Shown: in pieces, positions 45,704-56,047 of the stretch
How positions within the stretch are numbered: position 1 is the stretch's first letter
Layout of the letters: each line of letters opens with the position of its first letter
NCBI RefSeq assembly: GCF_000020325.1
Contig: NC_010730.1
Coordinates: 186,001 to 250,000, forward strand
DNA: 64,000 bases
DNA from: Sulfurihydrogenibium sp. YO3AOP1
GTDB lineage: Bacteria > Aquificota > Aquificia > Aquificales > Hydrogenothermaceae
Direction: 5' to 3'
Program-made: the position numbers and the translations under genes
Notes under the pieces: model-generated
Databases searched by the model: none
What the model was told of the DNA's origin: nothing
What the model saw: only the letters and a program-made list of their open reading frames with translations

Positions 45704-46557
45704 ATGCTTTCTGTTGTCAAAAGTGGTGGAACGTATGGAATAAATGGCTATGTTGTAGATGTTGAAGTAAATATTTCTCAAGGACTGCCACAGTTTACAG
45801 TTGTAGGACTACCGGATACGGCAGTAAAGGAAAGCAGAGAAAGAGTCAGGTCTGCAATAGAAAATATAGGATATAAGTTCCCGGTTAAAAAAATTACAGT
45901 AAACCTTGCACCGGCAGACGTATTAAAAATAGGGACGTTGTATGACCTGCCAATATCCATAGGCATTTTAGCATCTTCCGGAATAATTAACGAGAACGAT
46001 TTGAAAGATACAGCTTTTATTGGTGAGCTTGCTTTAAATGGAGACTTAAGAGGTGTTAAAGGAGTATTACCGATTGCAATCAAGCTAAAAGAAGTTGGCT
46101 TTAAAAGATTTATAGTTCCATTAGAAAATGAAGAGGAGGCAGCAATCGTAAATGGCCTTGATGTTTATGGATTTGCTAATCTTAAAGAAATTGTGGTGTT
46201 CTTAAACGGAAATTTAGAAAAACAGCCTAAAAAGATAGATGTTGATGAAGTTTTAGAATGTAGTTTAGACCATATAGGAGATTTTGCAGAAGTAAAAGGG
46301 CAGTATACAGTCAAAAAGGCTCTTGAAATTGCAGCGGCAGGATTTCATAATCTGCTAATGATTGGCTCGCCGGGCTCGGGTAAAACCATGCTTGCAAGAA
46401 GATTTTTATCAATACTGCCTCCACTCACATTCCAAGAAGCAATAGAAGTAACAAAAATACACAGCATAGCAGGAGTTTTGAAAGACAACATTGTAAGATG
46501 TAGGCCATTTAGAGCACCACACCATACGATTAGCGTATTGCACTTATTGGTGGGGGA
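45704..46557 (+). pseudogene. comM: ComM (YifB, Mg-chelatase-like) 5' half, interrupted by transposon and frameshifted
   Basis: It encodes the N-terminal part of ComM, a hexameric helicase for branch migration in natural transformation. Seen: YGINGYVVDVEVNISQGLPQ, VVGLPDTAVKESRERVRSA, then Walker A MIGSPGSGKTMLARR and CRPFRAPHHTIS. After HHTIS (46534) the expected reading (D/A-x-ALIGGG) is recovered only if one base is added at 46535/46536: the DNA reads GTATTGCACTTATTGG where GATATTGCA... would keep frame. The Tn7-like element begins at 46558. Together with the 3' half at 56048-56713 the gene would encode about 506 residues, the normal YifB length. Confidence 0.92.
46553..46557. repeat. Target-site duplication, left (GGGGA)
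   Basis: GGGGA precedes the left terminal repeat and is repeated at 56043-56047. Joining the two flanks at one copy restores GGT GGG GGA AGT TTT CCA of comM. Five base pairs is the duplication size of Tn7-like elements. Confidence 0.93.
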
Positions 46558-46624
46558 TGTAAAACTCAAAAATTATTGCGAAAACTCAAAATATATTGCG
46601 AAAAATACAAAAATTATTGCAAAA
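46558..46624 (+). repeat. Left transposon end: terminal repeat and three TnsB-type sites
   Basis: The outer repeat is 46558-46583. Three tandem copies of a roughly 19-bp motif are visible: CTCAAAAATTATTGCGAAA (46565-46583), CTCAAAATATATTGCGAAA (46585-46603) and TACAAAAATTATTGCAAAA (46606-46624), spaced 20-21 bp. Their regular spacing and sharing with the right end mark them as transposase (TnsB) binding sites. Confidence 0.88.
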
Positions 46625-46721
46625 CATTTATAAATAGTAATTTTTTATTTAGATATCTACGCTATTTAACAGTCAGTCAATTTTTCTTTCCTGCACCTAT
46701 TTATTCAAAAGGTAGGCTAAA

Positions 46722-48173
46722 ATGAATAGTGAAGCTTTTAATATTCTTAACAATGAATCTAACAAAAAAATCATTCAAGCACAGAAAAAGTCTACTTTGG
46801 TAGTTTGCGGTTATACAGATTTAAATTTTAGTCATGTAAGCGATGCTACTATAAAGGTCATATTAAGAGATAAAAGCAGTGGTAATTATCTAATAGCACA
46901 TAAAATACCTGTAAAGTCTTTGAGTTTATTGCCTATCGGAACTGAAATATATAAGAATGAAGTAAAATATACGGAGTTTCGGGAAGTAAATATAAAGCAT
47001 AATTTTTATAAATTTAGAGCATATAAGTATGATGAATTAAGCGGAAAAGAGAAAGATGTAATTTCAAAGTCTATATATGGAGATATTACTAAATGGAGCA
47101 GTGGAAAGTTTGTTGTTAAAAAGCCATATTTTTATATTTTCCCACAAAACAAGGATAGCATAATAATAATTCCTGACTTTCTACTGCTTATACCATTTTA
47201 TTTTCCCGACGATATTATCAGCAATATTACAATAGGGTTTAAACAACTTGATAGTTATATTGATATTAATAAGGTTGATTGCAATAATAAAACTCTTTCA
47301 TTGAAAAAGCATGTTCCTGAAAGTTCCAAGCTTTCTATCGTTCTTCTGTATCTGTATGCTTGTCATGAAGAGGCAAGAAAGAGACAAGGAGAGATTTTAA
47401 TTTATCATAACATAATTAAAATGAAAAAAGCACAAACAGAGGAGATAGAATTAGAGCATAAATCTATTGAAAACAAAGAAATAGAATTTTATTATAAATT
47501 TCCTTTTAACATGGAAACTGAATATATTTTTGAGGGCGAATATATTAATAACATATTTATTGCTTACAGGATACATCCAATAGATTTTGGTATAAAGATT
47601 TTTTACAGGTATTCTGGGAAAGGTGAGACAGGTCATCCAATTTCATCTTCAAAAAGGTATTTTAAATTAAAAAAAGTTAATGATATTAATATGAAGGGAA
47701 GTGATGTATATCACCCATTAAAATCGGGCATAGAAGATAGAGAATTTGCAAATAAAGGTTTTAGATATATAGGTCGATTAGAAAAATTAGAGCCAGAGAA
47801 AAAGTCAAAAAATCATACCAATAATAGTCTCATTCCGATAACTGAATACAGCAATGAAGAAATTGATGAAGGTGGTTTTGGTTTTGAAAAGAGCAAAGAT
47901 GGTTATGCATCTAAAATGAAAAGCGTAGAAAATGACGATGTTGATGGTTTGATAGATGCTTTAAGAAAGCATAAAGGAATAAAAAATTTTATAGATTTAG
48001 GTTCTTGGAGAGAGTGCAGAGTTATTTATTTTGTTTATAAAAGCAAGCATGTTTTAGTTGTGTTTCCTGTTATTAAAAATTCAGGTTCTTATGTATTTTC
48101 ATCAAGTAGTTTTAATTTTAAAGATAGTTTTAAGTGGATCGTAGAGGAGATTTTAAGGATAAGCTCGACTTAA
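46722..48173 (+). CDS. Transposon-borne protein, candidate divergent TnsE
   Basis: This 483-residue protein has AGGTAGG before the ATG. It has no signal peptide, zinc finger or nuclease motif. By eye its order of elements resembles Tn7 TnsE. A middle region has a PDF...L segment and VPESSKLSIVLLYLYACHEE followed by FYYKFPFNMETEY. The C-terminal fold has VDGLIDALRKHKGIK, then CRVIYFVYKSKHVLVVFPVI, a Ser-rich strand and FKWIVEEILRIS, aligning in pattern with the TnsE C-terminal domain (residues about 440-510). TnsE directs Tn7 to replicating and conjugating DNA. Against this call, it is transcribed opposite to tnsABC, at the other end. The alternative is an unrelated cargo protein, perhaps a partner of the adjacent methyltransferase. 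Confidence 0.5.
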   Translation: MNSEAFNILNNESNKKIIQAQKKSTLVVCGYTDLNFSHVSDATIKVILRDKSSGNYLIAHKIPVKSLSLLPIGTEIYKNEVKYTEFREVNIKHNFYKFRAYKYDELSGKEKDVISKSIYGDITKWSSGKFVVKKPYFYIFPQNKDSIIIIPDFLLLIPFYFPDDIISNITIGFKQLDSYIDINKVDCNNKTLSLKKHVPESSKLSIVLLYLYACHEEARKRQGEILIYHNIIKMKKAQTEEIELEHKSIENKEIEFYYKFPFNMETEYIFEGEYINNIFIAYRIHPIDFGIKIFYRYSGKGETGHPISSSKRYFKLKKVNDINMKGSDVYHPLKSGIEDREFANKGFRYIGRLEKLEPEKKSKNHTNNSLIPITEYSNEEIDEGGFGFEKSKDGYASKMKSVENDDVDGLIDALRKHKGIKNFIDLGSWRECRVIYFVYKSKHVLVVFPVIKNSGSYVFSSSSFNFKDSFKWIVEEILRISST

Positions 48174-48260
48174 CTTTTTGATAATAATCTTAATTTCATT
48201 CTCTAAAACTTCTAATTTAATCAACCCATTCTCCCTGTAAACTTTCTTTTCGTTTACCAT
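48153..48260 (-). CDS. Possible 35-residue ORF downstream of the methyltransferase
   Basis: The ATG at 48260 reads MVNEKKVYRENGLIKLEVLE, ending in KKLSRAYP at TAA 48153. It is Lys/Glu/Ile-rich and could form one amphipathic helix. It lies 15 bp after the methyltransferase stop but has no ribosome site (AT-only spacer) and overlaps the 3' end of the convergent gene. It may be the end of a lost cargo gene or chance. Confidence 0.2.
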   Translation of the reverse strand: MVNEKKVYRENGLIKLEVLENEIKIIIKKLSRAYP

Positions 48261-48275
48261 AATTATATATTATAA

Positions 48276-49607
48276 TTATATATTATACAAGGAAGCAAAA
48301 TAATTATTTAATTTCTTTTCAATTTTTTGTAAATCTATATTTTTATCATTGATTTTATAAAAATCAAAAAGTTCCTTTACTAATTGAAGGTATTTCTTAA
48401 AAAGTTTGTGATCTTTTAGAGCATATATGACAAAGAGTTCTTTATTTTTTTCTACAAAGTCTTTATTAACCAAAGGCGAAATATTACCAAAAATGAATAA
48501 GTCTTCTTTTTGTTTTTTTATCTTCGAAACAAACTTTTTTAGGCAATAAAGATATGCATATTTGTAAAAATTTTCTTTATTAACCGGTATTCCATTACTA
48601 TGTTCTTTATCTAAAAACGTGGTATTTCTCAAGGTAGAATTCAAATCTCTAAAAGTGTAGTAATAGATGTTTATAGAGGACAGCTTAGGTTCATTCTTGC
48701 GAGGTGGGTATTTATGTATATACCCATCTATAGTTTCATAATTACTTAATATAAATCTTTTATTACTATTTAGCAGTTTAAATTCAAAATCTCTAATATA
48801 GTCATAATTCATTCCTTCTTTGTTTTTCTCATATAATGCTATTACTACAGGGAATTCAGTATCCTTTGTAAATAAAAATTCTTTGCTTGAGAAGATATAA
48901 CCATCTTTTATACGGTAGGAATTTGTAAAACCTTTAAGCCTTTTGAAGTTTGCCTCTTTAATGAGATAAGACAGTGGGTGTAGTATACAGATAATATCAG
49001 CATCTAACTTGGCGTAAGCTTTCAAAAATGCAATTCCCATATCTCTATCGTAAACATCTTCATCGCACTCGATCTTTCCTTTTTCGTTTTTCTTATAAAG
49101 AGATGTTGTATCGTTATATGGTGGATTGCCAACGACAATGAGAAATTGTTCTTTGCCTATTTTAAATTTTTCTCTACTTACATTAACTAATGAATTTGTC
49201 TTAAAAATTTTTTCATGTGAAAAATATTGCTTGAGAAATGAGATTGCTTTATCGTCGTAATCAGCAGCTCTATAATCAATACTTAAAGCTAAGCACGGAA
49301 ATAGAAAAGCTCCGCCCCCAGCAGCAATGTCGGCTACGACTACATCATTCATATTATTCAAATAAGGATTTATAAGTTCAAAAACTTTATCAACGACATG
49401 TGGGGGTGTATAAAATGCACCAAGTTTGATTCTTTCATTTTCATACAAGTGAATAGCAGCAAATGGGTTTAATTCTATCATGCTATCCTTTCTTGAATTA
49501 TTATTTTTGTGCAAGTTAACTTTTTTGAATTTAAATAAGTATCTATTATTTTTGCTTAAAACCTTGTTATAACTAAATACTTCTGAATGGTCTGCATAAT
49601 AATTCAT
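48276..49607 (-). CDS. N6-adenine DNA methyltransferase (Eco57I-like), transposon cargo
   Basis: This 443-residue protein has AGGAGA before the ATG. SAM-binding motif I reads VVADIAAGGGAFLFPCLALS (about residue 89), preceded by GAFYTPPHVVDKVFELI, typical of type I/IIG adenine methyltransferases. Catalytic motif IV is IVVGNPPYNDTTS (about 157), followed by DADIICILHPLSYLIKEANF. There is no fused endonuclease domain, and no restriction gene is obvious in the element. It may be an orphan epigenetic or anti-restriction methyltransferase that protects the transposon in new hosts. Recognition sequence unknown. Confidence 0.85.
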   Translation of the reverse strand: MNYYADHSEVFSYNKVLSKNNRYLFKFKKVNLHKNNNSRKDSMIELNPFAAIHLYENERIKLGAFYTPPHVVDKVFELINPYLNNMNDVVVADIAAGGGAFLFPCLALSIDYRAADYDDKAISFLKQYFSHEKIFKTNSLVNVSREKFKIGKEQFLIVVGNPPYNDTTSLYKKNEKGKIECDEDVYDRDMGIAFLKAYAKLDADIICILHPLSYLIKEANFKRLKGFTNSYRIKDGYIFSSKEFLFTKDTEFPVVIALYEKNKEGMNYDYIRDFEFKLLNSNKRFILSNYETIDGYIHKYPPRKNEPKLSSINIYYYTFRDLNSTLRNTTFLDKEHSNGIPVNKENFYKYAYLYCLKKFVSKIKKQKEDLFIFGNISPLVNKDFVEKNKELFVIYALKDHKLFKKYLQLVKELFDFYKINDKNIDLQKIEKKLNNYFASLYNI

Positions 49608-49748
49608 TTATAATCTCCTGCCAGATTAAAATTTATAAAAAATAAATATTTTTATCAAGCAAACATTAAATTTTCCAAAATATAATAATACCTTACTTAT
49701 AACTTTTTCTTGTTCTTATATTATCATTATAATATAATTATATAATGT

Positions 49749-51050
49749 TCATGCTCTTTTATGGGTATAGTTCTTTTTTGAAAAATTATACATGCTACCT
49801 TGTTTAGTTTCGCTATTTTCTACTATTTCTTTCAACACCTTTACCTTCTTGCTACTACAAAAATCTATCCCAGTCCATTTTGTTAAATTTCTCAAACTAA
49901 CTCTTATACCGTTTTTCTGCATCCATTTAACAGCATTTCTAATCATTTCCTCAGTTACTATTTGATTATTTATACCTACTTGGTAATTGCTTATCAAATC
50001 AATATACCAATAAGGCGGATTATAATCGCTTCCTTCTTTAAATGTATTTAAAATATAAAAGGATAAATTATTATCCTTTACAAACTTATCAAAGCTTTCT
50101 CTATCCTTCAAAATGTCGTATATTGCTGTAAATAGAGAAATACCTTCCTTTACTTCTAAGAAATCTTCAATAAACCTACTTTTGATTTCTTTTTTACTTT
50201 TCAAAGGATAGTTATGTAGCTCAATTTCTGTTTGCAGTGCATCGTCTTTTCTATATTCATCTAAGTAAATTAACTTGGCTAACTTTTTTACAGTCCAAAA
50301 GTAAAAAATTGAGTAATAAGGTTTGTTTTCAAAAATAAAATAGCCATCATTTAAGATCTCTAACATTTTCTTTTGGTTTTCTACAGCCTTAGATTGGCTT
50401 GGTATTTTTTTGCTTTCTGCCTTATGAAATTCAAAGCCACAAAAAGGACAGTTAAAGAACTTTATGCCTTTTTTCCTTTTTGTTATTGTAATTGGGTTAT
50501 TACAGGATGGACATCTATCAAGTAAATAGCAGTTGTGTTTTTCGCATACATTTACAAATAATAATCTCCATTGTTTTTTGAAATAGTTGTTTTCTCTCAG
50601 ACAGTAGGGACAATATTTTAAGCCGTAAGATTTTGAATAACTTCCTTTTATCTTTACTGTTGATATTAAGTTATTTCTTGAATTATCTCTTATTGTTTCT
50701 GACAGATAACTTTCATAACTTTTTAGTCCTGTGTTGTATATGATAGTTTTACTTATTCTTGTTCTTTGACTAAAAATTTCTGCTAACTCAGAGTCCAAAA
50801 CTAAATCCGTATCTCTTGCTGTTAGTCTTTTATCCCTAAGAAAAGGAAAGTATATGTTTAGAAAAGTGGATACTTGGCAGTCAAATTTGGCAGAAAGTCT
50901 TGCAATCCATGATGAGAAAAGCTCATCTTTGAAAGGTGTTAGTGGATTTGGAATAACTGCATTGGCTAATGTTTCTCTGTAATCGTCTTTTTGGACTCTA
51001 TATCTGTATAAGAAGCTTCTATCTGAATAAAATCTAAATTTTTCGTTCAT
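49749..51050 (-). CDS. tniQ: TniQ/TnsD-family target-selection protein
   Basis: This 433-residue protein has N-terminal TPFKDELFSSWIARLSAKFD (TniQ signature PxxxELLxSWxxRLA) and zinc-binding clusters KYCPYCLRENNYFKKQWRLL, HNCYLLDRCPSC and FNCPFCGFEFH (about residues 147-208). A longer C-terminal part has a possible helix-turn-helix (EEMIRNAVKWMQKNGIRVSL). The length is intermediate between short TniQ and TnsD (about 500), consistent with a DNA-binding targeting protein. It probably recognises comM as the attachment site. The upstream ATG is 20 bp past the end of the TnpB element; before that insertion it would have followed tnsC directly. Confidence 0.9.
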   Translation of the reverse strand: MNEKFRFYSDRSFLYRYRVQKDDYRETLANAVIPNPLTPFKDELFSSWIARLSAKFDCQVSTFLNIYFPFLRDKRLTARDTDLVLDSELAEIFSQRTRISKTIIYNTGLKSYESYLSETIRDNSRNNLISTVKIKGSYSKSYGLKYCPYCLRENNYFKKQWRLLFVNVCEKHNCYLLDRCPSCNNPITITKRKKGIKFFNCPFCGFEFHKAESKKIPSQSKAVENQKKMLEILNDGYFIFENKPYYSIFYFWTVKKLAKLIYLDEYRKDDALQTEIELHNYPLKSKKEIKSRFIEDFLEVKEGISLFTAIYDILKDRESFDKFVKDNNLSFYILNTFKEGSDYNPPYWYIDLISNYQVGINNQIVTEEMIRNAVKWMQKNGIRVSLRNLTKWTGIDFCSSKKVKVLKEIVENSETKQGSMYNFSKKNYTHKRA

Positions 51051-51070
51051 TTTAGAGATTCATTCATATC

Positions 51071-51080
51071 TCTTGTGCGT
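51071..51080. repeat. Direct repeat at right boundary of TnpB element
   Basis: TCTTGTGCGT, repeated exactly at 52405-52414 on the other side of the TnpB gene. Removing everything between, plus one copy, joins tnsC codons Y-A-Q-E to an ATA codon and a TGA stop right before tniQ. Confidence 0.8.
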
Positions 51081-51250
51081 GACCCCTCCCTCACTTATAA
51101 AAGCGAGGGCTTCCTGCTTCATCGATGACGTCTACCTTGACATAGGGATTTGACCCTAATATCTTGGTAGCTAATGCCATCTCCACAGGCTTAAGATCGG
51201 AGCGGTCCACCCCTACGACCTGATTTTGGCTCAGGTCAAGCCCTTTCTTC
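51079..51250 (-). ncRNA. Candidate omega (guide) RNA region of the TnpB element
   Basis: The last about 150 bp of the TnpB gene and the following hairpin are visibly richer in G and C than the surrounding DNA. Potential stems are GACCTGA/TCAGGTC (51217-51223 with 51231-51237), TAGGG/CCCTA (51143-51158) and an end hairpin CCCTC..CTT/AAG..GAGGG (51088-51109). Active TnpB systems make a guide RNA from exactly this place, overlapping the 3' end of the gene, with the guide read from DNA beyond the element's right end. Here that would be host sequence beginning GCACAAGAGATATGAATGAA. RNA structure was not computed. Confidence 0.4.
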
Positions 51251-52356
51251 AAAATATTAATGGCAGAGTTTAGGTCTCTGTTTATTGTGTTTCCGCATAC
51301 AGGACAACAATAGATACGGTTAGAAAGGCTAATTTTTTGCTTATATCCACAAACGCAGCACTCTTGAGTAGTAGCCTCAAATCTATCTACAGGAATAGTC
51401 GCAAGTCTGTCTTTCAGTCTTGCTTTTAGCATCCCTATTCCTGAGTGTTGGATTTGAGAACCGAACCACCCTTCCTGCCATGATTTTATGTTATCGTCTT
51501 GATAGATAACCGTTCCGTAATGTCTAAAAAGTGCTAAAAGTTTATTATGTATCTCTTTTCTTTTATTTGTTAATCTCTCATGTTCTCTTTGAATTTTCTT
51601 TTGTGTTTTTATCCAATTTTTAGAACCTTTCTTTCTTCTTGCTAATTCTTTTTGCAATTTCTTTAATCTTTTACTTTCTTCTATTTTAAAATCAACCGTT
51701 AAGCCGTTAGATAGCGTTAATTTATTTGCTACTCCAAAATCTATACCTATAGCATCTCCTACTTTATCTCTCTCAAAATATTCTTTCTTCACATAGCAAG
51801 TTAAATAAACATAATAACCACTTGGCTTTTTAATAAGCTGTGCGTTTGCAATTTCATAATCTTGTGGAATTTGGTGTAATCCCAATACTCTAAACCAACC
51901 AAGCCCTTGAATTCTAACTTTATTTCTTTCAAAATCTATATCAAAACTAACCTTGTATTGTTTTAGACTTATAGAAGATATTGATTTTTTGAATTTTAGC
52001 CTTCCTACTTTATGTCCGTTTTCTTTTAAAGATTTTAGAGCTTTTAAATTATTTTTTACTCTGTCTTGAATCACTTGTTTTAACTGAGATCCTAAATATT
52101 TTATTTCTCTTTTTTCAAACTCATTTCCTACTTTTATCTCTACTTCTTTGATTTCTTTAGTAGAGATGTTTATTCTATTTATATCTGCTACAATCCAATT
52201 ATATAACCACTTTGCTTCTAAAAATACTCTGTTAAGCTTTTCTTCTTTGACTTTTGATAGATTTTGGATTTTGAGCTGATAAATAACAGGAATAAGGTTT
52301 TTCCTTCTCTCTTTGGTTTCCTTAATTGTTTGTTTTATTTTTTCTGCTTTGGTCAT
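51091..52356 (-). CDS. tnpB: TnpB (Cas12-ancestor) RNA-guided nuclease-like protein with RuvC-II Glu to Gln change
   Basis: This 421-residue protein has an N-terminal OrfB_IS605-type domain (about 20-190), RuvC-I AIGIDFGVANKLTLSNG (Asp206), RuvC-II GTVIYQDDNIKSW, a zinc finger (CC-x-CG at 333-337, CCPVCG at 350-355) and RuvC-III INRDLNSAINIL (Asp361). The RuvC-II catalytic glutamate of the family (I-x-x-E-D/N-L) is Gln286 here, encoded by CAA at 51501-51499, one base from GAA. Two of three metal ligands remain, so DNA cleavage is probably lost or weak while RNA-guided binding could persist. The C-terminal tail EAGSPRFYK is typical of intact IS-borne TnpB. The start ATGA overlaps the tnsC stop, so its translation is coupled to tnsC. 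Confidence 0.93.
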   Translation of the reverse strand: MTKAEKIKQTIKETKERRKNLIPVIYQLKIQNLSKVKEEKLNRVFLEAKWLYNWIVADINRINISTKEIKEVEIKVGNEFEKREIKYLGSQLKQVIQDRVKNNLKALKSLKENGHKVGRLKFKKSISSISLKQYKVSFDIDFERNKVRIQGLGWFRVLGLHQIPQDYEIANAQLIKKPSGYYVYLTCYVKKEYFERDKVGDAIGIDFGVANKLTLSNGLTVDFKIEESKRLKKLQKELARRKKGSKNWIKTQKKIQREHERLTNKRKEIHNKLLALFRHYGTVIYQDDNIKSWQEGWFGSQIQHSGIGMLKARLKDRLATIPVDRFEATTQECCVCGYKQKISLSNRIYCCPVCGNTINRDLNSAINILKKGLDLSQNQVVGVDRSDLKPVEMALATKILGSNPYVKVDVIDEAGSPRFYK

Positions 52357-53330
52357 TGTAGTATAATTATATTACAATTCATTTCACCTTGCAAGGTGGA
52401 GCCTTCTTGTGCGTAAATTTTTGAGTTGTCTACAGTTATATAATCAATTTCATTAAATAGCTTTATATCTATTTTTTCCTTCTTTTTTTCTATAGCTCTT
52501 ATAGCCATTTTGTTTATTATTGAGATAACATCTCCTGTTATCCCATTTGTCACTTGGTGTATTTTTGTAATGAATTTTTCATCTGCAAAGATGTAGGATT
52601 TTTCTTTTAGAGGTAGTGTTATTTCGATCGATTTAAGGAAGGCTATGAATTCGTTATCTATTTCCCAATTTTTAATTTTTATAGGCTTGAATCTACTTTT
52701 TAGCTGATGGTCTCTGTCTACCAAGGATACCGCTTCCCCTACACCTACTAAAACAATAGGAATTCTTAATATATTTGATAAGTTTTTTATTGCATTGGTG
52801 AATTCTTTCTGCTGGTTTGCCGAACCTGTTAGTCCATTGTGAATTTCATCAATTATCAGCATCTTTACTTGGAAATCCTCTATGTATGTTGCTATCTTGA
52901 CTTCCTTTTGTGTATCGCTATCTGTTGTTCTGAAAGGAACTTGCAATGCTGTTAGGATATTGTCATATAATACTTTATAGTTTGCTTTCACTGGAGCCAA
53001 TGCATACAAAACAGGAATTTTTGTTTGTATGTCATTAAGATCGTCTTGGTTGTTTTTCATTTTTGCATATCTCTTAATAGTATAGGTTTTTCCCATATTT
53101 CCGTCTCCTGCAAATAGATACGACTGCATTCTGTCCTCTCTTGGTGCATAGTATAACTCATCAAGCATTTTGAACATAGCTTCGGCTTTGCTGTGTCTGA
53201 TAAATTTTGGCTTTCTGATAAACTCTATTCTTTCTTTATCTGCTGCATTATCTCTGATTTCCTTGACAATTGGCGGAATTAAATGTTCGTAGTCTTCATA
53301 AAAATTGTTGTTTTCTACTTTTTGGCTCAT
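52353..53330 (-). CDS. tnsC: TnsC/TniB AAA+ transposition regulator, C-terminus rewritten by IS insertion
   Basis: This 325-residue ATPase has Walker A FAGDGNMGKTYTIKRYAK (about residue 72), Walker B VKMLIIDEIHNGLTGSANQQ (about 154), sensor IPIVLVGVGEA and LKSRFKPIKIKNW. TnsC polymerises on DNA and passes the target chosen by TniQ to the TnsAB transposase. The natural protein very likely ended ...NSKIYAQEI: the last 16 residues (GSTLQGEMNCNIIILQ) are encoded by the left end of the TnpB element. The changed tail is short and may be tolerated. It is 14 bp downstream of tnsB. Confidence 0.93.
   Translation of the reverse strand: MSQKVENNNFYEDYEHLIPPIVKEIRDNAADKERIEFIRKPKFIRHSKAEAMFKMLDELYYAPREDRMQSYLFAGDGNMGKTYTIKRYAKMKNNQDDLNDIQTKIPVLYALAPVKANYKVLYDNILTALQVPFRTTDSDTQKEVKIATYIEDFQVKMLIIDEIHNGLTGSANQQKEFTNAIKNLSNILRIPIVLVGVGEAVSLVDRDHQLKSRFKPIKIKNWEIDNEFIAFLKSIEITLPLKEKSYIFADEKFITKIHQVTNGITGDVISIINKMAIRAIEKKKEKIDIKLFNEIDYITVDNSKIYAQEGSTLQGEMNCNIIILQ
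52385..52398. repeat. Perfect palindrome at left end of TnpB element
   Basis: CACCTTGCAAGGTG is a 14-bp perfect palindrome between the tnsC frame and the tnpB start. It occupies the place of the left-end hairpin that TnpA recognises in IS200/IS605 elements. Confidence 0.7.
52405..52414. repeat. Direct repeat at left boundary of TnpB element
   Basis: TCTTGTGCGT, an exact copy of 51071-51080; on the minus strand ACGCACAAGA, encoding part of the tnsC residues Y-A-Q-E. Confidence 0.8.
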
Positions 53331-53344
53331 GTTTTTATCTCCTA

Positions 53345-55201
53345 TTAATCAAATTCTATGTCAAAGGGTTTTATTTCGTTTGTTTTTTTAATTTGTGGTT
53401 TTTCTTCTGTTTTATCGATAGGTTTTTCTAATTTTTCTGAAATTTCTTTGGAACTTAATTTGGTCTTATTGCTTTCTATTTGTTTTCTCATTAGTTTTGT
53501 TTTTTCTCTTGCTTCTTCTTCCATCTTTCTTAGTTCTTTAATTGTTTCATAAATTTTATATGATGTTATTTTTTCTCTCCTTTCTCTTAATATCTCTTTT
53601 GCCTTGTCTAATTCCCACAAAGTAGTTCCTATCGGAATCGGTGTTTTGCAGTAAGCTTCTATATAATCCTGTAAATTTTCATCGTAGAAATATATTTTTG
53701 TTATGTCTTTTGGATCATACTTGATTTCATATTTTTTATTATCTCCTGCGTATCTTACAAGAATATCTGAGTAGTAGTGCAGATCTTTAAATCTTATTCC
53801 TTCTTTTGATACATTCCTGTAATCAGATTTCAGCAGTGATATTCTTGCTATTCTTAATTCATCTTGGCTTAAGATTCTTATTCCATGGTTTGATTTAGTT
53901 AATCCTTCTTTAAATTTTTCATAAGGTGTTAATCCTTGCAGTCCATCATGCGGTTTTTGATGATAGTAATTAACTATCCAATAAACGATAAATTTCTCAA
54001 GTTCTTTTAAAGTAAATACAGCTTCTTTTTCTGGATTGTATTCTCTCTTTTCTTTTGTGTTAGAAAAGGTTGTTCCGCTTACGTTGTGTAGCTCTTTGTT
54101 TAAAGTTTTTATAAATCTTTCAACGTGCCCGCCGTAGAATGGTTTTCCTACAGGTCTATATACTAAGTTTATTCCCAGAGTCATGCAGAATTTTTCAAGA
54201 TTAGTTCCGTCAAATTCTGCTGCATTATCTGTGTGAATGTTAACAGGTAAGCCATAAATATCCCATTTTCCTTCTATTCCAAGTGTTTCCAAGTAATGAT
54301 TTTTGTTTATCAGTCCCATATATATAGCCTGTCCTACTGAATAATAGCTTGGAGGGTCTAATGATATATAAATTCCATATACCATTCTGCTGTAAACGTC
54401 TAAGGCTACTGTTATGTAAGGTCTTCCAATAGGTTTTCTGTCTATTTCTGATACTACTTGAATATCTAAAGGAGTATGGTCTATTTGTATCCATTCTAAT
54501 GGATAGTTTGCTTCAAATGAATTTTTTGCAGGATTTATTGTGCTTAAATACTTGTTTCTGCCTTCACGTTTTTTGTATATTGTTTCTCTGTCTATTTCTT
54601 TTAGATAGTAAAGTAATGTGGTATAGGCAATAGGTTTTAGCTTTTGGCTTATAAGTTCAGCATTAATTTCCTCGTAAAGCCTTTTAGCAGATATTCTTTG
54701 ATGAGTTAAATATCTTTCTTTTATCATTTTATCAACTATTTCTAAAGCTTTTTCTCCTATTCTTTTTTTACCTTTGCCGCCACGCCTTTCGTATCTTGGC
54801 AATAGTCCATATATAGTTTCTCCACTTTTTTTGTATCTTTCCATCCATCTGTATATGGTAGATAGATGGACATTGCATTTTTTGGCAATTTCTTCTCTTT
54901 CCTTAACTGATTTAGCATTCATAACAGCTTTGACTATTTCAAGTCTTCTCTGTGCCTCTTTTGATAGTTCTTCATCTATCTTGTCGAAAGGAGTTAGTTT
55001 TTCGTCTTCTTGCTTGTTCTTTTTTTCATATTGTTCCAATAACTTTTCTTGTAGATTAGATAATGGTATAGTAATTAATTGATTATAGTTCGTATCTCTT
55101 AAAACTACGTCTATAGTATTGTTTTCAGTATTTATGCTATAATTCTCAATTATGTATTCTTTATCAAGCTCAATCACTTTTCCTTTCTTAATTTCTATCA
55201 T
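53345..55201 (-). CDS. tnsB: TnsB DDE transposase
   Basis: The 618 residues comprise an N-terminal helix-turn-helix region (IAKKCNVHLSTIYRWMERYK, about 113-132) and a second DNA-binding domain (about 140-205). The retroviral-integrase-like catalytic core has WIQIDHTPLDI (first Asp, about 238), NIHTDNAAEFDG (second Asp, about 317) and GGHVERFIKTLNKELH (Glu, about 352). A Mu-type beta-barrel follows, then a Lys/Glu-rich tail that in Tn7 contacts TnsC. TnsB cuts and joins 3' ends and binds the end repeats. It starts 16 bp after tnsA. Confidence 0.95.
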   Translation of the reverse strand: MIEIKKGKVIELDKEYIIENYSINTENNTIDVVLRDTNYNQLITIPLSNLQEKLLEQYEKKNKQEDEKLTPFDKIDEELSKEAQRRLEIVKAVMNAKSVKEREEIAKKCNVHLSTIYRWMERYKKSGETIYGLLPRYERRGGKGKKRIGEKALEIVDKMIKERYLTHQRISAKRLYEEINAELISQKLKPIAYTTLLYYLKEIDRETIYKKREGRNKYLSTINPAKNSFEANYPLEWIQIDHTPLDIQVVSEIDRKPIGRPYITVALDVYSRMVYGIYISLDPPSYYSVGQAIYMGLINKNHYLETLGIEGKWDIYGLPVNIHTDNAAEFDGTNLEKFCMTLGINLVYRPVGKPFYGGHVERFIKTLNKELHNVSGTTFSNTKEKREYNPEKEAVFTLKELEKFIVYWIVNYYHQKPHDGLQGLTPYEKFKEGLTKSNHGIRILSQDELRIARISLLKSDYRNVSKEGIRFKDLHYYSDILVRYAGDNKKYEIKYDPKDITKIYFYDENLQDYIEAYCKTPIPIGTTLWELDKAKEILRERREKITSYKIYETIKELRKMEEEAREKTKLMRKQIESNKTKLSSKEISEKLEKPIDKTEEKPQIKKTNEIKPFDIEFD

Positions 55202-55217
55202 TAGCTTAGCCTCACGT

Positions 55218-55850
55218 TTAGTTTATACATATTAGAGTATTGCTGTTTAATCCATTTTCAATATTTAATATTTTAAGTTCTTTGTTAGCTATTAGTGACA
55301 GTATATATCCCTTTATTTTTGCATTTTCTATTGCATCGTAATAAGTAGCTAAATTGTTAAACAGGTCTTGAAAGGAGATTTTTTCATGACTTTTAACAAT
55401 CTCTAAAATTTTCTCTTTATATTCTGCTGGAACTTTTGTTTGAGTGTGCTGATGGAGTGCCATTGAAACTTGCAGAATATTTTGATTTATATCTTCTTCC
55501 GTTATAATTAAAAACTCTATATTGTTTTCTTGGCAGTATTGTTTTAACGTTTCTATTTTCTTTGCTAATTTATCGTCCATGTTTTTTACTTTTTCTAACG
55601 GTTTTACTTCTACAAGCTGTTTTTTGTCTTTCCTTTCAACTAAAACATCTGGAACGTATAAATCTACCTTTAGTGGCTGTGGTAAGTATCTAATAACATC
55701 TTCATCTATTTCAAGCGTATAAAAATAGTTTCTTTCAAGTAGTGATTCGTGGTATACAACTATTTTATTTTTATAGCTATACATTTTTCCCCTAACAGAA
55801 ACTCTTTTTGTTGGAATGTTTCTTACACCCACTTTTTTCTTTCTTTTCAT
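55218..55850 (-). CDS. tnsA: TnsA endonuclease subunit of the heteromeric transposase
   Basis: The protein is 210 residues from the ATG at 55850 behind GGAGAT. A TTG at 55883 in the same frame lies inside a TnsB-type repeat and is not favoured. The nuclease core shows HESLLERNYFYTLEID (Glu), DLYVPDVLVERKDKKQLVEV (Asp, then E-x-K in LVEVKP), the restriction-enzyme-like triad of TnsA (Glu63, Asp114, Lys132 in Tn7). TnsA cuts the 5' strands, giving cut-and-paste rather than replicative transposition. The C-terminal domain (about 120-210) is helical. Confidence 0.9.
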   Translation of the reverse strand: MKRKKKVGVRNIPTKRVSVRGKMYSYKNKIVVYHESLLERNYFYTLEIDEDVIRYLPQPLKVDLYVPDVLVERKDKKQLVEVKPLEKVKNMDDKLAKKIETLKQYCQENNIEFLIITEEDINQNILQVSMALHQHTQTKVPAEYKEKILEIVKSHEKISFQDLFNNLATYYDAIENAKIKGYILSLIANKELKILNIENGLNSNTLICIN

Positions 55851-55875
55851 TTCTATCTCCAAACTATTTCCAAAT

Positions 55876-56042
55876 TTTCGCAATAATTATATCAAATTTT
55901 CTAAAATTTTGCAATAAATTTTGTATTTTAAGAATAATTTTGCAATAATTTTTGTGAGTTTAGTGAAAAGAGTTTTTTAGGAAATTGTTGATTATCAATG
56001 ATTTAAGTAAAATTAATTTCGCAATAATTTTTGAGTTTTACA
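55876..56042 (-). repeat. Right transposon end: terminal repeat and four TnsB-type sites
   Basis: The outer 26-bp repeat is at 56017-56042. Four copies of the motif, read on the minus strand toward the interior, are CTCAAAAATTATTGCGAAA (56018-56036), CTCACAAAAATTATTGCAAA (55939-55958), TACAAAATTTATTGCAAAA (55907-55925) and ATATAATTATTGCGAAA (55876-55892). The innermost lies 26 bp upstream of the tnsA ATG, where transposase binding could repress tns transcription. Confidence 0.85.
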
Positions 56043-56047
56043 GGGGA
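56043..56047. repeat. Target-site duplication, right (GGGGA)
   Basis: Second copy of the 5-bp duplication found at 46553-46557, directly after the right terminal repeat. Confidence 0.93.

What the first reader, a model, noticed from the sequence alone, without database searches (positions are those of the whole stretch)
51071..52414. RuvC-damaged TnpB lodged between tnsC and tniQ of a Tn7-like transposon
Seen directly: the element reads tnsA-tnsB-tnsC-tnpB-tniQ on one strand, with tnpB overlapping the tnsC stop by ATGA. The TnpB RuvC-II glutamate is Gln (residue 286, CAA), while Asp206, Asp361 and the zinc finger are intact. Known: type V-K CRISPR-associated transposons arose when a TnpB/Cas12 protein with a dead RuvC became part of a Tn7-like operon (Cas12k), and nuclease-dead TnpB proteins have been recruited as RNA-guided regulators (TldR). 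Inference: this locus could be an early capture of an RNA-guided DNA binder by a Tn7-like element. More simply, it may be a recent IS insertion with one inactivating mutation. Intact hairpin ends favour a recent insertion.
Basis: partly seen in the sequence, partly recalled or inferred. Interest (0 to 1): 0.92.

Follow-up and report, generated by a model that had tools for sequence, protein, structure and literature searches.

The report
Insertion sequence in a Tn7-like transposon
A small, ordinary mobile element carrying an RNA-guided nuclease gene (tnpB) has jumped into the last codons of one gene of a larger transposon; its odd active-site residue is shared by all its relatives, so this is not a newly captured guided targeting system.

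Summary
The gene order, the Gln at RuvC-II and the ATGA overlap are all real. They do not show capture of an RNA-guided binder. (1) A same-genus genome (G103) carries the same Tn7-like element at the same comM site, 94% identical in TnsC, without tnpB. Its tnsC ends ...IYAQEI-stop, tniQ follows, and the TTTAC target is intact. The window carries a 1,334-bp IS200/IS605-type solo-tnpB element (51079-52412) at exactly that TTTAC. The tnsC tail and the ATGA overlap are IS sequence. (2) Gln286 is no fresh lesion. All 37 distinct clade members aligned have Q-x-[D/E] at RuvC-II, all 23 outgroup TnpBs have E with no acid at +2, and the tree splits them with 100/100 support. This looks like a rearranged active site; such TnpB clades are published, and one member cleaves DNA. 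(3) The clade is under purifying selection (window versus an 82%-identical copy in a viral contig, dN/dS about 0.07) and keeps a covarying guide-RNA scaffold. (4) Five other related Tn7-like elements lack tnpB, and the other tnpB copies lie away from tns genes. Ordinary; low interest.

The parts
51079..52412 (-). solo-tnpB IS200/IS605-type (IS1341-like) insertion sequence, 1,334 bp, inserted 3' of TTTAC at the end of tnsC
   Evidence: Empty site in G103 L034/L049; family ends after T(T)TTAC and at TCAC in relatives, fixed by near-identical copies L013 and L061 at different loci
51091..52356 (-). tnpB, 421 aa; RuvC D206, Q286-D287-D288, D361, zinc finger C333/C336/C351/C354
   Evidence: Pfam OrfB_IS605 and Cas12f1-like_TNB; NCBIfam guided_TnpB above cut-off; AF2 model pLDDT 84, top fold hit TnpB 8h1j
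51079..51218 (-). predicted omega/reRNA scaffold ending in TCAC, overlapping the tnpB 3' end
   Evidence: Covariation over 33 relatives: 94.4% of cells paired, 15 of 22 pairs with both-side changes; weak sub-threshold RAGATH-18 resemblance
51059..51078 (-). predicted guide segment GCACAAGAGATATGAATGAA, that is the tnsC-tniQ junction itself
   Evidence: Sequence directly 3' of the scaffold; guide placement inferred from known TnpBs
52413..52417 (-). TTTAC target / TAM-like site flanking the IS left end
   Evidence: Present in the IS-free sister tnsC
52353..53330 (-). tnsC (TniB AAA+), last residue Ile replaced by 16 residues read from the IS left end
   Evidence: Pfam TniB; compare G103 tnsC
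53345..55201 (-). tnsB transposase
   Evidence: Pfam rve and Mu-transpos_C; dN/dS 0.07 against G103
55218..55883 (-). tnsA
   Evidence: Pfam Tn7_TnsA-like_N
49749..51050 (-). tniQ
   Evidence: Pfam TniQ; dN/dS 0.12 against G103
46558..56042 (.). whole Tn7-like element in comM, 26-bp perfect terminal inverted repeats, 5-bp target duplication GGGGA (46553-46557 and 56043-56047)
   Evidence: TIR search; intact comM in G101

Best explanation
A non-autonomous IS200/IS605-type element, solo tnpB plus its guide RNA, inserted 3' of a TTTAC in the last codons of tnsC of a comM-resident Tn7-like transposon, most likely after the split from the G103 element. TnsC keeps all but its last residue and gains a 16-residue IS-encoded tail; tniQ stays intact. 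The TnpB belongs to a mobile clade whose RuvC-II acid moved from the usual Glu position to two residues downstream (Q-x-D/E). It most likely still acts as an RNA-guided nuclease that maintains its own IS, using the flank as guide to cut IS-free sites. Shown: empty site, clade-wide Q-x-[D/E], purifying selection, conserved RNA structure, absence from related Tn7-like elements. Inferred: cleavage activity, guide use, mobilisation by a TnpA in trans.
For: Empty site in the same Tn7-like element of G103 with TTTAC intact. Family ends T(T)TTAC| and TCAC| in about 30 relatives. Gln286 in 37 of 37 clade members with D/E at +2, and Glu with no acid at +2 in 23 of 23 outgroup members; the split is one branch with 100/100 support. 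Every viral-contig Q-type TnpB aligned repeats the pattern and every E-type one lacks it. Window against the 82%-identical L102 copy, located in a viral contig without Tn7 genes in its flanks: dN/dS 0.07; other Q-type pairs mostly 0.08-0.20. Covarying guide RNA scaffold. TnsC followed by TniQ with no tnpB in five other Aquificota elements. Published: RuvC-II-rearranged TnpB clades exist, and one RII-r5 ortholog cleaves dsDNA (PMC10278001). Own genome has one Y1 tnpA.
Against: Cleavage by this TnpB was not tested, and a clade-wide loss of nuclease activity is not excluded by sequence. G103 could in principle have lost the IS by precise excision, although the more distant elements also lack it. 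An 8-nt match between the left tip and the right flank (GCACAAGA) is unexplained; it may be chance, since the 82%-identical copy has CACAAGAAGG natively at its left end.
Confidence: 0.95

Rival explanations
1. Early capture: a nuclease-dead TnpB has become the RNA-guided targeting subunit of the Tn7-like element, as in the origin of Cas12k transposons.
For: Position in the operon and the ATGA overlap; non-canonical RuvC-II residue.
Against: Sister element at the same comM site lacks tnpB; the overlap is made of IS sequence; IS ends are present; the same Q occurs in copies at unrelated loci; no CRISPR-like array; no other Tn7-like element found has it.
Confidence: 0.02
2. The whole Q-type TnpB clade has lost DNA cleavage and works as an RNA-guided DNA binder that benefits the IS in some other way.
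For: Canonical RuvC-II Glu absent in all clade members.
Against: A new acid two residues on is invariant; D206, D361 and the zinc finger are kept; a published RuvC-II-rearranged TnpB cleaves dsDNA (PMC10278001).
Confidence: 0.2
3. Recent IS insertion carrying one fresh inactivating mutation (E286Q).
For: Single copy in the genome.
Against: Gln is invariant in the clade and predates the insertion by far; window copy against L102 dN/dS 0.07.
Confidence: 0.01

Closest known systems
IS200/IS605 solo-tnpB elements (IS1341 group)
   Same: Single tnpB, subterminal hairpins, target-specific insertion 3' of TTTAC, guide RNA scaffold overlapping the gene's 3' end
   Different: RuvC-II Glu replaced by Gln with a D/E two residues on; some clade members elsewhere have what reads by eye as a Y1 tnpA directly upstream
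TnpB clades with RuvC-II rearrangement (RII-r3, RII-r5)
   Same: Canonical RuvC-II Glu position not Glu, other catalytic residues kept; one RII-r5 ortholog is active (PMC10278001)
   Different: Which published clade this one falls in could not be tested; the defining paper is not held
Type V-K CRISPR-associated transposon (Cas12k)
   Same: Cas12/TnpB-like gene next to tnsC and tniQ
   Different: Here TnsA is present, there is no CRISPR-like array, and TnpB sits inside its own IS and is absent from sister elements
comM-targeting Tn7-like elements (Tn6022 group)
   Same: Insertion into comM, TnsABC plus TniQ-type proteins
   Different: No recombinase-like TnsF recognised among the element's genes; insertion is upstream of the Walker B region

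Membership tests
IS200/IS605 solo-tnpB element | Insertion 3' of a short fixed target without loss of target sequence, empty site recoverable | tested here: met
   TTTAC in G103 empty site and at window left junction
IS200/IS605 solo-tnpB element | Conserved subterminal hairpin ends shared with relatives at other loci | tested here: met
   Left end after T(T)TTAC, right end hairpin plus TCAC in about 30 relatives
IS200/IS605 solo-tnpB element | TnpB protein with OrfB and zinc-ribbon domains | tested here: met
   Pfam and NCBIfam guided_TnpB above cut-off
Active RNA-guided TnpB | Canonical D-E-D RuvC triad | tested here: not met
   RuvC-II is Gln with D at +2; clade-wide
Active RNA-guided TnpB | Guide RNA scaffold with conserved structure at the 3' end | tested here: met
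   Covariation, 94.4% cells paired against 45-58% when slid
Active RNA-guided TnpB | RNA-guided DNA cleavage | not testable with these tools
   Needs biochemistry
RuvC-II-rearranged TnpB (RII-r clades) | Non-canonical RuvC-II residue as a clade trait, not a single lesion | tested here: met
   37 of 37 Q-x-[D/E], one branch 100/100
RuvC-II-rearranged TnpB (RII-r clades) | Position inside the published RII-r3 or RII-r5 clade | not tested
   Reference sequences and defining paper not held
Type V-K CAST | Effector stably kept in the transposon | tested here: not met
   Absent in G103 sister element and four others
Type V-K CAST | CRISPR array in the element | tested here: not met
   Only end repeats and short AT-rich pairs found
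Type V-K CAST | TnsA absent (own knowledge) | tested here: not met
   TnsA present at 55218-55883
TldR-type domesticated TnpB | Immobile, IS ends lost, catalytic residues degraded relative to mobile relatives (own knowledge) | tested here: not met
   IS ends present; Gln shared with mobile multicopy relatives
Tn7-like transposon in comM | TnsABC plus TniQ, inverted repeats, 5-bp duplication, insertion in comM | tested here: met
Tn6022 group | TnsF target selector (inactive tyrosine recombinase, PMC10293859) | tested here: inconclusive
   No recombinase domain found; the one unassigned gene (46722-48173) has no Pfam, NCBIfam or PADLOC hit

The most novel reading that the evidence does not exclude
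The rearranged-site TnpB is active, and its guide, taken from the tnsC-tniQ junction, matches the IS-free sister Tn7-like element (17 of the first 18 bases after TTTAC in G103). The IS could then cut and home into competing Tn7-like elements, spreading through a transposon family like a drive. Co-option of TnpB for Tn7 targeting itself I put at about 0.02.
Probability: 0.1. Interest if true: 0.4.

Novelty: new member of a known kind. Interest (0 to 1): 0.12.

Why it matters
It removes a tempting candidate for an intermediate in the origin of RNA-guided transposons and shows how a chance IS insertion can mimic an operon capture, down to an ATGA overlap. As a by-product it gives a clean pattern (Glu to Gln with a new acid at +2, one transition on the tree) that makes a directly testable prediction about how the TnpB active site can be rearranged.

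Tried and rejected
Capture by the Tn7-like element: rejected by the empty site and by the IS origin of the overlap. A fresh E286Q lesion: rejected by clade-wide Gln. A junction-repair explanation for the 8-nt match between left tip and right flank: dropped after the 82%-identical copy L102 showed CACAAGAAGG natively at its left end. A search of viral contigs for close TnsC relatives found none. The PNAS paper that classifies rearranged TnpB clades is not held, so the published clade name could not be assigned. No coordinates of the predicted model were available, so the geometry of D288 relative to D206 and D361 was not measured; DSSP only shows Q286 in strand 280-287. Cas12f/Cas12u PADLOC hits reflect general TnpB homology.

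Full report
Observation. On the minus strand the window has tnsA, tnsB, tnsC, tnpB, tniQ, each supported by Pfam. TnpB residue 286 is Gln (CAA), D206 and D361 and the four zinc-finger cysteines are present, and tnpB ATG overlaps the tnsC stop as ATGA. The window lies in a 1,838,442-bp single-contig genome; the size fits Sulfurihydrogenibium sp. YO3AOP1 (own knowledge, not tested).

The empty site. A TnsC search over 136 genomes of the phylum gave 7 with a match; the closest is G103, same genus, 94% identical. Its locus reads tnsA-tnsB-tnsC-tniQ with no tnpB, and its tnsC ends ...DNSKIYAQEI-stop. At the DNA level G103 reads AAAATTTACGCACAAGAAATATGAATGG; the window reads AAAATTTACGCACAAGAAGGCTCC... 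on the left and ...GGGGTCACGCACAAGAGATATGAATG on the right. So the window carries an insertion exactly after TTTAC. The 16 residues after TnsC Glu309 (GSTLQGEMNCNIIILQ) and the ATGA overlap are IS sequence, not an evolved gene junction. The surrounding transposon is 93.8-95.6% identical between the two genomes, and both copies sit at the same comM position, while G101 has intact comM, which gives a 5-bp duplication GGGGA and 26-bp perfect inverted repeats for the whole element.

Ends of the IS. In about 30 relatives the left end follows T(T)TTAC and the right end is a hairpin followed by AGG..GTCAC. Two nearly identical copies in one genome (L013 and L061) diverge exactly at these points. The window IS therefore runs 51079-52412.

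Gln286. The TnpB search gave matches in 69 of 136 genomes, and a genome-contig scan added Bacillota, Coprothermobacterota and other relatives. Of 60 distinct long sequences aligned, the 37 close ones all have Gln at this position and Asp or Glu two residues later; the 23 others all have Glu and no acid at +2. The tree separates the two sets on one branch with 100/100 support. TnpBs from viral contigs repeat the pattern without exception. Published work describes clades with RuvC-II rearrangement, warns against presuming them inactive, and reports one active RII-r5 ortholog (PMC10278001).

Selection and RNA. The nearest relative found, L102, is 82% identical and lies in a viral contig with no Tn7 genes within the fetched flanks; its own frame is broken by a frameshift. 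Window against L102 gives dN/dS 0.07 at dS 1.4, so the ratio is rough. Other Q-type pairs give mostly 0.08-0.20; one near-identical pair has too few changes to judge. The 140 bases up to TCAC form a structure with 15 of 22 pairs showing both-side changes over 33 sequences, 94.4% of cells paired against 45-58% for slid versions. By eye, the window row forms the main helices fully. Rfam gives only sub-threshold matches to RAGATH-18, a family known as guide RNA of IS607 TnpBs (PMC11061315).

Is tnpB kept with Tn7 genes elsewhere? Not in anything found here. Five other Aquificota elements have tnsC directly followed by tniQ, and none of the fetched Q-type tnpB loci other than the window's own carries tns genes in its flanks (flanks are mostly 1.5 kb). 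No CRISPR-like array is present in the element.

How it works, most likely. A Y1 transposase in trans (one is present elsewhere in this genome, beside a Glu-type TnpB whose right end also finishes in TTCAC) placed the IS after TTTAC. The TnpB-RNA complex, with the flank as guide, would cut IS-free copies of the site and so favour the IS. The insertion and the conserved parts are shown; the enzyme activity and the source of transposase are inferred.

Verdict. An ordinary IS insertion in a comM-resident Tn7-like transposon, with a clade-wide, already described kind of active-site change. Low interest for the question asked.

Noticed in passing
46558-56042 and L056 (G131): Tn7-like elements in at least two Aquificota families sit inside comM (L056 has comM halves on both sides); the window's element has no recognisable TnsF recombinase-like selector, suggesting comM targeting by TniQ or an unrecognised protein.
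   Followed up: partly
46722-48173: A 483-aa gene next to the left end, with no Pfam, NCBIfam or PADLOC match, is found only here and in the G103 element (91% identical) among 136 phylum genomes.
   Followed up: partly
48276-49607; L049 326-2449: The two sister elements carry different methyltransferase genes at the same cargo position (Eco57I-like here, a larger N6-methylase-like protein in G103), pointing to cargo exchange.
   Followed up: no
51071-51078 and 52405-52412: The eight bases after the right end (GCACAAGA) equal the first eight of the left end; the left tip is similar in the 82%-identical copy, so this may be chance or a site preference.
   Followed up: partly
L102 2001-3258: The closest relative of the window TnpB (82%) lies in a viral contig with ParB-like and Mu-like transposase genes (read by eye) and is broken by a frameshift.
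   Followed up: partly
45704-46560: The comM fragment left of the transposon has lost one base relative to intact comM of G101 (AGCGTATTG against AGCGATATTG), as expected for a decaying gene.
   Followed up: no
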